Under the pieces are notes generated by a model. It saw nothing but the letters and a program-made list of their open reading frames with translations. It was not told the DNA's origin and made no database searches. 44,144 nucleotides of DNA from a virus: the IMG/VR virus record IMGVR_UViG_3300030098_003858, positions 1-44,144 of that record, one strand, 5' to 3'. The translations under genes and the position numbers were made by a program. How positions within the stretch are numbered: the stretch's first letter is position 1; every line of letters starts with the position of its first letter. Below, in pieces: positions 1-44,144 of this stretch.

Positions 1-150
1 AGGGACAGATATGTACACGACTACAGACAACCGATATACGATCTAAATAAAACATTTCAACTGTATTGCAAAAGCCACAAGCAGTGGGAACGAGTACGAA
101 TGTTATCAACAAATAAGGGAACTATTTTCATTGTTGGTGCGTTAAAATAA
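1..150 (+). CDS. C-terminal part of a small lipoprotein-like protein (cut by window edge)
   Basis: The frame is open from base 1 to the TAA at 148-150 and matches the last 49 codons of the complete gene at 43742-43963. It differs by two amino acids (Leu for Met, Asn for Lys). It is the same locus seen through the circular join, not a paralogue. The missing start and signal sequence lie at the other end of the window. Confidence 0.85.
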   Translation, partial: RDRYVHDYRQPIYDLNKTFQLYCKSHKQWERVRMLSTNKGTIFIVGALK

Positions 151-163
151 AAAAGGATAAAAT
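134..163 (+). promoter_or_regulatory. Weak sigma70-like promoter candidate for the 173-249 RNA
   Basis: TTGGTG (134-139) and TAAAAT (158-163) are 18 bp apart. Transcription would start near 170, just before the closing stem of the structured RNA at 173. The placement is suggestive but both boxes are imperfect and the region is AT-rich, so chance is possible. Confidence 0.3.
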
Positions 164-172
164 TGGAATTTT

Positions 173-249
173 ACTTTGCTACATCTAAGAAGTTAAGCCA
201 CGCATGTAAAAGCACCGCCAATGTCTTGTTGGGCGTAGCAAAGTTTTTT
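173..249 (+). ncRNA. Structured RNA with 10-bp closing stem and T-run
   Basis: ACTTTGCTAC (173-182) pairs perfectly with GTAGCAAAGT (235-244), and the T-run 244-249 follows as at an intrinsic terminator. Inside, CGCCAA and TTGGGCG can form a second stem with one bulge. GAAGTTAAGCC at 189-199 and GCCAATG downstream resemble, in the same order, conserved strings of bacterial 5S rRNA; this may be chance. It lies between the lipoprotein-like gene and the 271 gene, so it could be a stand-alone small RNA or an attenuating leader. A near-identical copy sits in the terminal overlap. Confidence 0.5.
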
Positions 250-270
250 AAAATAAAAAAGGAGATAAAT

Positions 271-489
271 ATGGCAAAATTCAATCAACCACAACTAGAC
301 GGGGCAATCTTACGAACCAAGACTTGCAAGTATGTTGTTAACCTCTTGTGTGAGGTGTATGAAAAGTATGTTCCCGAATCAGACCAATCTATATATAGAG
401 ATGCTTATGAACATATTGTAGGTCAGCGAAACAAGGCTTTAAATACGCTACAATTAATTAAAATAGCGTTAAAGAAGGAAGGTAACTAA
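271..489 (+). CDS. Small hypothetical phage protein (72 aa)
   Basis: ATG 271 follows AAGGAG at 259-264 with ideal spacing. A longer reading from TTG 163 would run through the structured RNA and is rejected. The product is mostly helical and basic at its end, with no motif I recognise. Its TAA overlaps the next ATG by one base (TAATG), the coupling that recurs through this early arm. The first 61 bases recur at the window end. Confidence 0.75.
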   Translation: MAKFNQPQLDGAILRTKTCKYVVNLLCEVYEKYVPESDQSIYRDAYEHIVGQRNKALNTLQLIKIALKKEGN

Positions 490-4569: not shown

Positions 4570-4756
4570 AGACATAACTCACGTAGAAGAATGCTGGGAT
4601 GACAACCCCGACAATGATTACTACTATGCAGAGATATGTGGATTAAAACGGGCCCTAGAGCATGTCTTAAGAGCGGAAGCGGGAGAACTTACCGAACTAG
4701 ACAAGTGGGCCACCAAACAAGAAGGAAAGGAAAATTATGAACTTACAAGTAGGTGA
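4529..4756 (+). CDS. Small acidic hypothetical protein (75 aa)
   Basis: ATG 4529 lies inside the 4366 gene and follows AAGGAG at 4517-4522, which decides the start. It overlaps the 4366 gene by 41 bases in another frame. The product has an N-terminal beta/basic part and an acidic helical rest. No known motif. It overlaps the start of the 4737 gene by 20 bases. Confidence 0.62.
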   Translation: MFTVLSKLKYNINKDITHVEECWDDNPDNDYYYAEICGLKRALEHVLRAEAGELTELDKWATKQEGKENYELTSR

Positions 4757-4940
4757 GGTACAGAATATTACTATACATGGCGTATCGTCAGTATCTGTAG
4801 AAGACTCTAACCCATTAGAGTCCCCCATGAACAAAAACAATAAATACTACAGAACGATGGTAGTGAGAACAGAGGATGGGCAATACATAGAAATTACCTT
4901 ATTCTCAAGAGATTACGAACTATTGAGGTACAAAAAATAA
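4737..4940 (+). CDS. Small hypothetical beta-rich protein (67 aa)
   Basis: ATG 4737 follows GAAGGAAAGG. The product alternates hydrophobic and polar residues (VQNITIHGVSSVSVED, GQYIEITLF) and likely folds as a small beta barrel or sheet. It is the last gene before the structured RNA at 4948. Function unknown. Confidence 0.66.
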   Translation: MNLQVGEVQNITIHGVSSVSVEDSNPLESPMNKNNKYYRTMVVRTEDGQYIEITLFSRDYELLRYKK

Positions 4941-4947
4941 ATACCAC

Positions 4948-5037
4948 GCAGGGTGGACTAATGGTCAGGTTTTTATTCTATTCCGTTTTACCTGACTAGC
5001 CTATGACTACACATCTCAGTCTGCCCTGCATTTTTTT
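4948..5037 (+). ncRNA. Branched structured RNA ending in a T-run
   Basis: The 5' strand 4948-4959 (GCAGGGTGGACT) pairs with 5018-5029 (AGTCTGCCCTGC) over 12 pairs, two of them G-U, and is followed by a seven-T run (5031-5037). Inside, GGTCAGGT (4963-4970) pairs with ACCTGACT (4990-4997) over a T-rich 19-nt loop, leaving about 20 bases between this hairpin and the closing strand. There is no T-arm, so it is not a tRNA despite a D-arm-like start. It fills the gap between the 4737 gene and the Cas4-like nuclease, so it may be a small RNA, a leader/attenuator of the nuclease, or both. Confidence 0.6.
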
Positions 5038-5057
5038 CACATACCAAGGAAAATTAC

Positions 5058-5786
5058 ATGATTGACATACAAGCAATATATCACAAGTGGCTTCGCAAGA
5101 ATAATGACCTTCACTATAAGAAACGATATGATGGGCACGAGAAATGGTTTCATGGGTCTGCTTCAGGTATGTGTATGAGAAAACATTATTTTCAGCATAT
5201 TGCCGGAGTTAAACCAAAAGAGATTAAGGAAGATACATTACGGTTGTTTCGACTAGGAGACTTGGTACATGGAGATATTCAAGAAGCATTAATAGAGTAT
5301 GCCAGCTTACACGGGTCACAAATACTTATAGAGCGAGAGATACAACTTCCAGAGGTAAACGTAAGAGGATTTTTAGATGTTATTATTGTGGAGGACAACG
5401 CCCTCTACGATATTAAAACATGCAACGCTTGGAAATGGAAGGGCCTATTTGGAAGAACACCTGATGCCAACCCACCAGAAAATTATTATTTACAGCTAGG
5501 AACATACGGCTGGTGGTATGAAAAAGAATATGGGAACAAACTAAAAAAGTTAGCGTTATTGTATTATAACAAAGACAATTCAAGAATGAAAGAAAAGATT
5601 ATAAGGACATCTTACATCGATAGAGCAAAAGAATATTGGCTAGATGTGAATAAAAGATTTGAAAAAGGAAATCCACCAATAGAATTGGGAGTTGCTCCGG
5701 TGTACAAGTGGGAATGTAACCCAAAGTACTGCAACTTTTATGAAATATGTGGTGGAGGCTTAAAAGAAAAAGGAGATGATCTATGA
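5058..5786 (+). CDS. Cas4/RecB-like PD-(D/E)XK exonuclease with Fe-S cluster
   Basis: The protein probably resects DNA ends in replication or recombination. The order of motifs fits Cas4/AddB-type nucleases: C39, then H71 in GDLVHGD, D107 in GFLDVII, YDIK (D118-x-K120) and QhxxY (Q146-Y150). Three more Cys (C220, C225, C231) with C39 can bind a 4Fe-4S cluster. Length (242 aa) fits the family. The start at 5058 has an AAGGA site and follows the structured RNA. It is coupled to the 5783 gene by ATGA. No CRISPR array or other Cas gene is present, so a phage recombination role is more likely than adaptation. Confidence 0.88.
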   Translation: MIDIQAIYHKWLRKNNDLHYKKRYDGHEKWFHGSASGMCMRKHYFQHIAGVKPKEIKEDTLRLFRLGDLVHGDIQEALIEYASLHGSQILIEREIQLPEVNVRGFLDVIIVEDNALYDIKTCNAWKWKGLFGRTPDANPPENYYLQLGTYGWWYEKEYGNKLKKLALLYYNKDNSRMKEKIIRTSYIDRAKEYWLDVNKRFEKGNPPIELGVAPVYKWECNPKYCNFYEICGGGLKEKGDDL

Positions 5787-7880: not shown

Positions 7881-8101
7881 GCACAGCATATAAAACTTTA
7901 AAACAGAGAGCGTTAATAGGGATGTATAAAAAACTATTGAAGCAGGGTAAGATTCAGCAGTCGGGTTCTGCATATCGCAGAATGAGGCAGTTGGAATTAA
8001 AATATCAACAACAAACGAGGTGGCTTGGTGTCAGATATCAAGAAAGTATGACAGATGATCATGCGTTGGCTAAATTGATAAAAACAGAAGACCTGAACTA
8101 A
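7877..8101 (+). CDS. Small basic helical protein (74 aa)
   Basis: ATG 7877 overlaps the previous TGA and follows AAGGAG. The product is Lys/Arg/Gln-rich and helical, with a tail that turns acidic. It may bind nucleic acid. No known family. A 24-base gap separates it from the 8126 gene. Confidence 0.65.
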   Translation: MSTAYKTLKQRALIGMYKKLLKQGKIQQSGSAYRRMRQLELKYQQQTRWLGVRYQESMTDDHALAKLIKTEDLN

Positions 8102-8125
8102 GCCATCTCATAAATAGGAGGCAAT

Positions 8126-8338
8126 ATGGCCGAATACAAAATGAAAGACAGCAATTTTAAGCTGTGGAAAAACAAGTACAAAGAAGATGGCGATAAAAAG
8201 CCTGACTACACCGGAAACGGAATGGTCAATGGAGAGAAAAAAGATTTCTCTTTGTGGATCAATGAGGATGATAATGGACAAAGATACCTCTCCGGTCAGT
8301 TTAAGGAGCCTTTTAAAAAGAAGAATAGCCCTTTTTAA
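8126..8338 (+). CDS. Small phage protein with a DYTGNG...YLSG pattern (70 aa)
   Basis: ATG 8126 follows AGGAGG. The sequence has an N-terminal helix or turn (FKLWKNKYKE), PDYTGNGMVNGEKKDFSLWI and RYLSGQFKEPF. This order recurs in small beta-type proteins of phages and proteobacteria that sit beside DNA-metabolism genes; I know them by pattern only. It is the last gene before the hairpin at 8350. Confidence 0.6.
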   Translation: MAEYKMKDSNFKLWKNKYKEDGDKKPDYTGNGMVNGEKKDFSLWINEDDNGQRYLSGQFKEPFKKKNSPF

Positions 8339-8349
8339 CTTGGGTTGAT

Positions 8350-8375
8350 AATAGGGGGGCTAGCGCCCCCTTATT
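8350..8375 (+). terminator. GC-rich stem-loop after the 8126 gene
   Basis: An 11-bp stem starts AATAGGGGGGC (8350-8360), has the loop TAGC (8361-8364) and closes with GCCCCCTTATT (8365-8375). Its 3' arm ends in T-rich sequence (TTATTCTTTAT). It would stop or slow rightward transcription 13 bases after the 8126 stop codon. Confidence 0.7.
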
Positions 8376-8392
8376 CTTTATAAAATATTTAG

Positions 8393-8425
8393 GCGATAGT
8401 TATATCAAAAAATATTTTTTATCGC
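8393..8425. other. AT-rich inverted repeat before the 8462 gene
   Basis: GCGATA (8393-8398) pairs with TATCGC (8420-8425) around an A/T loop that contains AAAAATATTTTTT, itself self-complementary. It could be an operator or a second weak terminator. It lies between the terminator at 8350 and the last two early genes. Confidence 0.35.
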
Positions 8426-8461
8426 TTTAAACGGAAATATAGAGGGGGTTTTTTAAGTAAG

Positions 8462-8704
8462 ATGTTTGAATTTTGTAGTAAAAGAAATAGGTCGTGTGGT
8501 TTTTGTGCAAAATCGTACTATAACCCAGAAAAACAAAAAAATGATAACGAACAAAGTTTATTTTGTGGTATTGCAGGTGGTTATAACACTCTTGTTTCTA
8601 ACTTACCAGACTGTTGGCTTACCATGACCAAGAGTCAGCGAAGCACATTCACAAAAAAACAAAAACAAAAATATTTAGAAATGAAAATTAAAGGGAGTAG
8701 GTGA
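8462..8704 (+). CDS. Cys-rich small protein (80 aa)
   Basis: ATG 8462 has a G-rich tract (GAGGGGG) about ten bases upstream. Cys at 5, 12, 15, 35 and 51 suggest metal binding (zinc or Fe-S), with C12-x2-C15 as the clearest knuckle. The C-terminus is Lys/Gln-rich. It lies beyond a terminator, so its expression may need read-through or antitermination. Function unknown. Confidence 0.65.
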   Translation: MFEFCSKRNRSCGFCAKSYYNPEKQKNDNEQSLFCGIAGGYNTLVSNLPDCWLTMTKSQRSTFTKKQKQKYLEMKIKGSR

Positions 8705-38789: not shown

Positions 38790-38928
38790 ATAATAGTACT
38801 ATAGTATATATAGTATATAGTATTTATAGTAAGTAGTATATATTATATATATATTATATATATAGTACTATAGTAGTATTATATATATATTATATATATA
38901 GTATATAGTAATATAGTAATTATAGTAT
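38790..38928. repeat. A/T-rich TATAGTA repeat block
   Basis: About 140 bp built from TATAGTA, TATATA and AGTACTA units. A 27-base unit occurs twice, at 38841-38867 and 38877-38903, identical in sequence and 36 bp apart. TAGTACTATAGTA occurs near 38794 and 38863. The block is nearly all A/T with a few G/C of the repeat. It may be a DNA-unwinding element or bind an AT-specific regulator. Assembly collapse or slip in the repeats is possible. Confidence 0.75.
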
Positions 38929-39377: not shown

Positions 39378-40325
39378 ATGCAAAAAAACGCATGGAATGA
39401 ACTAACAGCTAATTGGGATAATATATCTGAAAAGGTAGAAACCGATATAGCTATGCCAAATAATGGATTACCGGTAATTGAAAATTGTGGTGGTAATTGG
39501 GATCCTTTTATAGAGGTACATAAGGAACCTGTGTTTTTTAATGATAGTACACAGAACCCGACAGTTTATGGAGTAAGGTTAGGGTCTCAGGATAAACACC
39601 TTGCTGGTAATGTTTCAGAAAAATATTTGTTAGTTCCAAACAGAGAATTGGTAGATGTTGCTAATGAAATAATGAGTGAATCAGAAATTTCATTTGAGCA
39701 TCATAAAAGATTCTTTAATAATAGAGGTCAATTCAGGGATATATGGTATGCTGATAGTAGCATTGAAGCTAAAGTTCCTGAAGTTGGTGATGTTATACGC
39801 CTTGTAATGGAACTACAAAATTCTTACAATGGAACAACTAGAGCCGGTATCAGGTTTTATTTTGAGAGGTATATCTGTAAGAATGGTATGACATCTAATG
39901 TTTTTGGTTTTGGTCATACTTTTGAGCATACTCTAGGAAACATAGATTGGAAGGATCAAATCTTACAAGCTACTCAGCTTCTCAGAACACAATCTCAGTA
40001 TAAAATTCAACAATTTGCTGAAGCTTGTGGTAAGTTACAGAAACCGGTAGGAAATACAGAAATTGCTACTATCCGAGAATCTTATCTGTCTAAGTTACCT
40101 ATGCAACAGTGGGGCCAACTTACAGATAAATTCTATAAGGATAAGGATTACACAGCGTGGGGTTTGTTAAACGCCGGAACGAATGTTTTATGGCACGCTA
40201 ACAAACTAACGAATGCTAACTTTGAAAATAATACTATAGTAGTTGATGGACTTTTGAAGTATGGTAAAGATACAGAAGAAACTCCGTTTGTAGATCCTAA
40301 TCAAACTGACATGTTCCAATCATAA
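39378..40325 (+). CDS. DUF932 phage/plasmid-like protein (315 aa)
   Basis: The start has AGGAG at 39367-39371. The sequence follows the DUF932 order: YGVRLGSQDKHLAGNVSEKY, LVPNRELVDVANEI, then WYADSSIEAKVPEVGDVIRL, RAGIRFYFERYICKNGMTSN and LLNAGTNVLWHANKLTN. Members are found in phages and plasmids; their role is unknown, though they are often early and abundant. The gene forms its own unit with a leader, a strong terminator and likely a single promoter. Confidence 0.88.
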   Translation: MQKNAWNELTANWDNISEKVETDIAMPNNGLPVIENCGGNWDPFIEVHKEPVFFNDSTQNPTVYGVRLGSQDKHLAGNVSEKYLLVPNRELVDVANEIMSESEISFEHHKRFFNNRGQFRDIWYADSSIEAKVPEVGDVIRLVMELQNSYNGTTRAGIRFYFERYICKNGMTSNVFGFGHTFEHTLGNIDWKDQILQATQLLRTQSQYKIQQFAEACGKLQKPVGNTEIATIRESYLSKLPMQQWGQLTDKFYKDKDYTAWGLLNAGTNVLWHANKLTNANFENNTIVVDGLLKYGKDTEETPFVDPNQTDMFQS

Positions 40326-43741: not shown

Positions 43742-43963
43742 ATGAAATATATTTTATTACTTATCATTTGTTGTAGTTGCAGTATGAACATACCATCGCA
43801 TAAAATAATGGATAGGGACAGATATGTACACGACTACAGACAACCGATATACGATCTAAATAAAACATTTCAAATGTATTGCAAAAGCCACAAGCAGTGG
43901 GAACGAGTACGAATGTTATCAACAAAAAAGGGAACTATTTTCATTGTTGGTGCGTTAAAATAA
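43742..43963 (+). CDS. Small lipoprotein-like protein (73 aa)
   Basis: ATG 43742 is preceded by AAAGG. Signal-like start (KYILLLIICCSCSMN, residues 2-16) with Cys at 10, 11 and 13; one may be the lipid site, but none has a perfect lipobox. The rest is basic and polar (DRDRYVHDYRQPI). It may act at the envelope. This is the full copy of the gene cut at the window start. Confidence 0.65.
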   Translation: MKYILLLIICCSCSMNIPSHKIMDRDRYVHDYRQPIYDLNKTFQMYCKSHKQWERVRMLSTKKGTIFIVGALK

Positions 43964-43985
43964 AAAAGGATAAAATTGGAATTTT

Positions 43986-44062
43986 ACTTTGCTACATCTA
44001 AGAAGTTAAGCCACGCATGTAAAAGCACCGCCAATGTCTTGTTGGGCGTAGCAAAGTTTTTT
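43986..44062 (+). ncRNA. Right copy of the structured RNA
   Basis: Same RNA as at 173-249, seen again through the circular overlap. Sequence is identical in the paired arms. It belongs to the same locus. Confidence 0.5.
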
Positions 44063-44083
44063 AAAATAAAAAAGGAGATAAAT

Positions 44084-44144
44084 ATGGCAAAATTCAATCA
44101 ACCACAACTAGACGGGGCAATCTTACGAACCAAGACTTGCAAAT
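44084..44144 (+). CDS. N-terminal part of the 271 protein (cut by window edge)
   Basis: ATG 44084 with AAGGAG upstream opens the same reading as at 271. The only difference in the shared part is a silent AAG/AAA at codon 20. It is the same gene seen through the circular overlap. Confidence 0.75.
   Translation, partial: MAKFNQPQLDGAILRTKTCK

What the first reader, a model, noticed from the sequence alone, without database searches (positions are those of the whole stretch)
4948..5037. Second structured RNA, 12-bp closing stem, before the Cas4-like nuclease
A 90-nt element with a long closing helix, an internal 8-bp hairpin and a seven-T tail fills an intergenic gap between small genes. It resembles the 173-249 element only in architecture. 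I know of no Rfam family that fits. It could be a small RNA or a leader controlling nuclease expression.
Basis: seen in the sequence. Interest (0 to 1): 0.75.

Follow-up and report, generated by a model that had tools for sequence, protein, structure and literature searches.

The report
Conserved leader RNA before phage nuclease
Just before a DNA-cutting enzyme gene in a group of uncultivated phages lies a short folded RNA whose shape has been kept by paired mutations in every close relative examined; it is most likely a built-in control or processing element of that gene's message, and it matches no known RNA family.

Summary
Window 4948-5029 folds into a 12-bp closing stem and a 9-bp inner hairpin (z -5.8), with a T7 run after it. 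It is a real structured RNA: the same architecture lies in front of the Cas4-like PD-(D/E)XK nuclease in all 35 distinct relatives of one nuclease clade (support 100/99), between the upstream stop codon (2-12 nt away in 34 of 35) and the ribosome-binding site. Stem sequences change freely but stay paired: 94.8% of cells paired, 13 of 16 pairs with compensatory changes. G-U pairs are common and A-C mismatches essentially absent in the closing stem, so the coding-strand RNA is what is selected. The conserved letters are unpaired: a 3' strand CACAACUACACAUCUC and a loop ACUCCAUUUGUUU. The T-run is not conserved; no Rfam match. It is best read as a cis-acting leader or intercistronic element, not a free small RNA. 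Which factor it binds, and whether it acts on translation or mRNA processing, is not shown; Shine-Dalgarno masking and a pseudoknot were tested and not supported. More distant relatives carry elements with the same unpaired words further upstream, some apparently circularly permuted. Other structured leaders exist in the same operon.

The parts
4948..4959 (+). closing stem P1, 5' strand
   Evidence: fold; anchored pair counts over 29 distinct relatives show compensatory changes
4962..4970 (+). inner hairpin P2, 5' strand
   Evidence: fold; 4 of 6 modelled P2 pairs have changes on both sides
4971..4989 (+). pyrimidine-rich hairpin loop; relatives have ACUCCAUUUGUUU here
   Evidence: alignment
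4990..4998 (+). inner hairpin P2, 3' strand
4999..5017 (+). conserved, G-poor single strand J2/1 (GACUACACAUCUC here; CACAACUACACAUCUC in most relatives)
   Evidence: most invariant columns of the alignment; predicted unpaired 0.83 here, mean 0.87 over 23 sequences
5018..5029 (+). closing stem P1, 3' strand
5031..5037 (+). run of seven T, not conserved in relatives
   Evidence: sequence; tails of 35 relatives
5046..5050 (+). Shine-Dalgarno-like AAGGA of the nuclease gene
   Evidence: sequence; conserved CAUACYAAAGGA in relatives
5058..5786 (+). Cas4-like PD-(D/E)XK nuclease gene that the element precedes
   Evidence: PHROG 1706/1990, Pfam PDDEXK_1 above its cut-off
4737..4940 (+). 67-aa upstream gene of unknown function; stop codon 7 nt before the element

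Best explanation
It is a cis-acting structured element in the 5' leader (intercistronic region) of the Cas4-like nuclease message. Shown: a long clamp helix and an inner hairpin are maintained by selection on the coding-strand RNA; they hold out a conserved G-poor single strand and a conserved pyrimidine-rich loop; the whole is fixed between the upstream stop codon and the nuclease ribosome-binding site. Inferred: a trans-acting factor, most likely a phage or host RNA-binding protein, reads the two unpaired words and thereby sets how much nuclease is made, by helping or blocking ribosome loading at the adjacent start, or by protecting or processing the mRNA at that joint. A ribosome terminating on the upstream gene would reach into the closing stem, so coupling to upstream translation is possible.
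For: Same architecture in the same gap in all 35 distinct nucleases of one clade, 0 of 20 outside it at that place, one change on the tree with support 100/99. A model seeded with 10 sequences finds the element once per genome, only there, in 26 of 30 whole contigs; the few weak extra hits (E 0.37-0.81) look like chance: three of the four inspected fall in one coding gene and the other has no such fold. Covariation: 94.8% of cells paired, 13 of 16 pairs with changes on both sides, score 0.534 against 0.198 +/- 0.015 shuffled and 0.035-0.094 when slid (also 30). An ungapped count of the closing stem anchored on GGG/CCC, free of any model, gives the same: several pair types at nearly every position outside the anchor, G-U cells present and no A-C cell except at the outermost counted position. 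Gap geometry fixed: stop to stem 2-12 nt in 34 of 35, stem to start 17-28 nt. L202 keeps the RNA where the small upstream gene is not detected, so it goes with the nuclease. Unpaired words are the best conserved letters.
Against: No factor or ligand identified. Tests for the simplest switch, pairing of loop or single strand with the Shine-Dalgarno region, were negative (weaker than swapped controls), as was a loop/strand pseudoknot. The start region is hardly more exposed or hidden than average. In one subclade the single-strand word changes from CAACUACACAUC to ACGUCAUGU. Nothing here measures expression.
Confidence: 0.6

Rival explanations
1. It is an intercistronic mRNA-processing or stability site of the kind phage T7 has between its early genes: a double-strand-specific RNase such as RNase III cuts at the stem and gives each cistron its own end, with no dedicated regulator.
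For: Several long-stem elements lie between early genes of these phages, each ending about 12-31 nt before a start codon. Stem sequence is free while a long stem is kept. T7 gaps before genes 1.1 and 1.3 also fold into hairpins ahead of the start codon.
Against: RNase III sites need helix, not long conserved unpaired words; here the unpaired strand and loop are the best conserved letters. The internal loop is about 2 against 19 nt, more lopsided than I recall for T7 sites (from memory).
Confidence: 0.22
2. It is a stand-alone small RNA ending in the T-run after the closing stem.
For: In the window a GC-rich stem is followed by seven T, as in an intrinsic terminator.
Against: Only 4 of 35 relatives have five or more T there (reading). 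The gap leaves 2-12 nt before the stem, no space for its own promoter. The element is never found away from the nuclease leader in whole contigs of this clade.
Confidence: 0.08
3. It is a metabolite-sensing riboswitch whose lopsided internal loop is the binding pocket.
For: Conserved unpaired core inside a closing helix just ahead of a ribosome-binding site is typical riboswitch anatomy.
Against: Single gene context, one phage clade, core word replaced in a subclade, and no alternative pairing with the ribosome-binding site found.
Confidence: 0.06
4. The inverted repeat matters as DNA (replication origin, cruciform, protein operator), not as RNA.
For: Inverted repeats occur at phage origins; the neighbouring genes include nucleases.
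Against: G-U pairs are tolerated but A-C, which is what a G-U looks like on the other strand, is absent from the same anchored positions apart from the outermost; spacing to stop and start codons is fixed.
Confidence: 0.03

Closest known systems
Phage T7 intercistronic RNase III processing sites
   Same: Hairpins in the gaps between early genes, ahead of start codons (T7 gaps before 1.1 and 1.3 folded)
   Different: The T7 hairpins folded there have nearly continuous stems; this element has a large one-sided internal loop with conserved sequence. Cleavage not testable here.
Autogenous leader elements of phages and ribosomal-protein operons (protein-bound hairpins ahead of a ribosome-binding site; general knowledge)
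   Same: Position next to the start codon, conserved unpaired letters in a variable helical frame
   Different: No binding protein known; no sequence or structure match to any curated family
manA and wcaG RNA motifs of marine metagenomes and cyanophages (PMC2864571)
   Same: Structured RNAs associated with phage genes, found mainly in marine metagenomes
   Different: Different genes, and no Rfam hit here

Membership tests
any Rfam 15 family | score at or above the family's gathering threshold | tested here: not met
   0 matches in the window; lax search of the element gave two chance hits; 7 divergent relatives gave none
cis-acting mRNA leader element | fixed position upstream of one gene on the coding strand | tested here: met
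   35 of 35 distinct relatives, 17-28 nt before the start codon
cis-acting mRNA leader element | RNA structure under selection (compensatory changes, coding strand) | tested here: met
cis-acting mRNA leader element | element changes expression of the downstream gene | not testable with these tools
   needs reporter or RNA-seq data
intrinsic terminator / terminated sRNA | GC-rich stem followed directly by a conserved T-run | tested here: not met
   T-run of five or more in 4 of 35 relatives (reading)
SD-sequestering translational switch | loop or linker complementary to the ribosome-binding site, co-varying with it | tested here: not met
   observed pairing weaker than swapped and shuffled controls
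RNase III processing site | about two turns of helix in an intercistronic gap | tested here: inconclusive
   P1 plus P2 together come near two turns in most relatives but are interrupted by the lopsided loop
RNase III processing site | cleavage by RNase III | not testable with these tools
   needs enzyme or mutant data

The most novel reading that the evidence does not exclude
The element belongs to a dispersed family of clamp RNAs that these phages place before several early genes, read by one factor through shared unpaired words, and the module tolerates circular permutation. In the nuclease clade of the window the word strand is on the 3' side of the internal loop; in seven more distant loci ACGUCAUGU sits on the 5' side, between a short outer and a long inner helix, 449-491 nt before the nuclease. 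It would then be an RNA-coordinated early operon.
Probability: 0.2. Interest if true: 0.72.

Novelty: new member of a known kind. Interest (0 to 1): 0.55.

Why it matters
It is a new RNA family with strong comparative support, in phages whose nuclease has no match in the phage collection searched. It marks a likely control point of a nuclease that a phage must dose carefully, and together with other conserved leaders in the same operon it suggests that these phages rely heavily on RNA structure to set gene dosage. The covariation model makes the family searchable, and the conserved words give direct bait for finding the binding factor.

Tried and rejected
Loop or single strand masking the Shine-Dalgarno sequence: weaker than swapped controls. 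Pseudoknot between loop and single strand: no better than swapped. Pairing of UACACAU with the AUGUGUA that encodes the conserved Met-Cys-Met of the nuclease: seen in several loci, rejected because TGT/TGC codon changes are not matched by the RNA. Exact word CAACTACACATCTC in all viral contigs: hits that carry the element are the known group plus one new contig, the other contexts inspected are unrelated (part of that output was cut). Weak extra model hits: of four inspected, three fall in one coding gene and one has no such fold. First plain RNAalifold run recovered only P1 because the sequence aligner misplaced P2 in some groups. Dependence on the small upstream gene: not required, L202 lacks a detectable copy. 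Host assignment: only one relative, in a contig binned as Candidatus Marinimicrobia, too little to name a host; the nuclease has no tblastn match in the phage collection.

Full report
OBSERVATION. It fills the gap between a 67-aa gene (4737-4940) and a 242-aa gene (5058-5786). The second is a Cas4-like PD-(D/E)XK nuclease: PHROG 1706 at 3e-21, Pfam PDDEXK_1 above its cut-off. Energy alone would not make it stand out from all other folds of the window, so relatives were collected.

RELATIVES. The nuclease found 50 loci in IMG/VR, a nuclease alignment found further ones down to 55% identity, and one came from a contig binned as Candidatus Marinimicrobia. In every nuclease of the clade that holds the window, 35 distinct sequences, the gap just upstream holds an element of the same architecture. 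In 20 more distant nucleases no such element stands in front of the gene; in many of them the nuclease abuts or overlaps the previous gene. On a maximum-likelihood tree the presence of the element needs one change, support 100/99.

STRUCTURE UNDER SELECTION. A covariance model built from 10 sequences recovered the element once in each of 44 loci and nowhere else in 580 kb, and found it in 26 of 30 whole contigs; seeds match by construction, the others do not. On the 37 distinct model-aligned sequences 94.8% of cells are paired, 13 of 16 pairs have changes on both sides, and the covariation score is 0.534 against 0.198 in shuffles and at most 0.094 when the partner strand is slid (a smaller set). 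Because such alignments lean towards their model, the closing stem was recounted without any alignment, anchored on its invariant GGG/CCC: nearly every position outside the anchor shows several pair types, G-U cells are present, and no cell is A-C except at the outermost counted position. A G-U on the coding strand is A-C on the other, so the selected molecule is the coding-strand RNA. This also argues against a DNA-level function.

WHAT IS CONSERVED IN SEQUENCE. Stem letters vary; the unpaired ones much less. The 3' single strand reads CACAACUACACAUCUC in most relatives (GACUACACAUCUC in the window) and the loop ACUCCAUUUGUUU in many. The single strand is predicted unpaired with mean probability 0.87. 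In one subclade (L038, L173, L178, L184, L185) the strand word is ACGUCAUGU instead.

GEOMETRY. The upstream stop codon lies 2-12 nt before the stem in 34 of 35 relatives (18 in one), and the stem ends 17-28 nt before the start codon. In L202 the 67-aa gene is not detected and another gene stands upstream, yet the element is there; so the element belongs to the nuclease. The T-run of the window is found in only 4 of 35 relatives (my reading). A terminated small RNA is therefore unlikely.

MECHANISM. Shown: RNA structure, strand, fixed place in the leader, conserved unpaired words. Inferred: a trans-acting factor reads the words and sets nuclease output through ribosome loading or through mRNA processing or stability. 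Simple switches were tested: complementarity of loop or strand to the ribosome-binding site is weaker than in swapped controls, and no pseudoknot is supported. Pairing with a conserved stretch inside the nuclease gene looked promising but fails the covariation test. An RNase III-type intercistronic site, as between T7 early genes, is the strongest rival.

WIDER PICTURE. In the more distant clade the unpaired words reappear further upstream. In 14 loci (100 kb) ACGTCATGT occurs seven times on the coding strand, all at 449-491 nt before the nuclease, and never on the other strand; ACTCCRTTTGTT with at most one mismatch occurs four times, at 412-601 nt before it (once on the other strand), three of them inside a long stem. 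In the seven ACGUCAUGU loci the word is on the 5' side of the loop, between a short outer and a long inner helix, as expected for a circular permutation; the minimum-energy fold of two of the seven (L200, L203) does not show the outer pairs. Elements of the same general build precede an HNH gene in that clade. In the window three further structured gaps precede genes: 173-244, 8017-8109 and 8365-8449. The 8017 element, with a UUGGC core, is conserved in both clades with 35 distinct 5' stem strands among 38 loci. This supports a general use of structured intercistronic leaders in these phages; that they share one factor is only a possibility.

NOVELTY. No Rfam family matches. Works like: a protein-bound leader element or a processing site. 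Membership in either is open because the defining activity cannot be tested here. I file it as a new family of a known kind.

Noticed in passing
window 8017-8109, before the gene at 8126: A second, different structured leader: stem of 6-18 bp with 35 distinct 5' strands among 38 loci, enclosing UUGGC, ending mostly 16-23 nt before a start codon, present in both nuclease clades; in the window its 5' part overlaps the end of the previous gene. No Rfam match. UUGGC was the search anchor, so its invariance is partly by construction.
   Followed up: partly
window 8365-8449, before the gene at 8462: A third structured gap: GCCCCCUU..AGAGGGGGU closing stem; elements with the same closing stem stand in the corresponding gap of L010, L012, L028 and, with a longer stem, L038.
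   Followed up: no
   Followed up: partly
window 1-331 and 43814-44144: The two ends of the window are a 331-bp direct repeat, 99.1% identical, so the record is probably a complete genome with overlapping or repeated ends.
   Followed up: partly
L048, L200, L203, L204, L205, L206, L207, 449-491 nt before the nuclease: Elements with ACGUCAUGU on the 5' side of the internal loop, a likely circular permutation of the subclade L038/L178/L184 element.
   Followed up: partly
L189:1615-1678, L045 near 4632, L046:4385-4444, L195 near 2037 and L198 near 2046: Lopsided hairpins with pyrimidine-rich loops just before an HNH endonuclease gene in the clade that lacks the element at the nuclease.
   Followed up: partly
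L020:3674-3764: A 20-bp closing stem 17 nt before the start of a 118-aa gene.
   Followed up: no
window 38831-38920: Very AT-rich (10% GC) strong hairpin on the + strand, about 460 nt before the gene at 39378.
   Followed up: no
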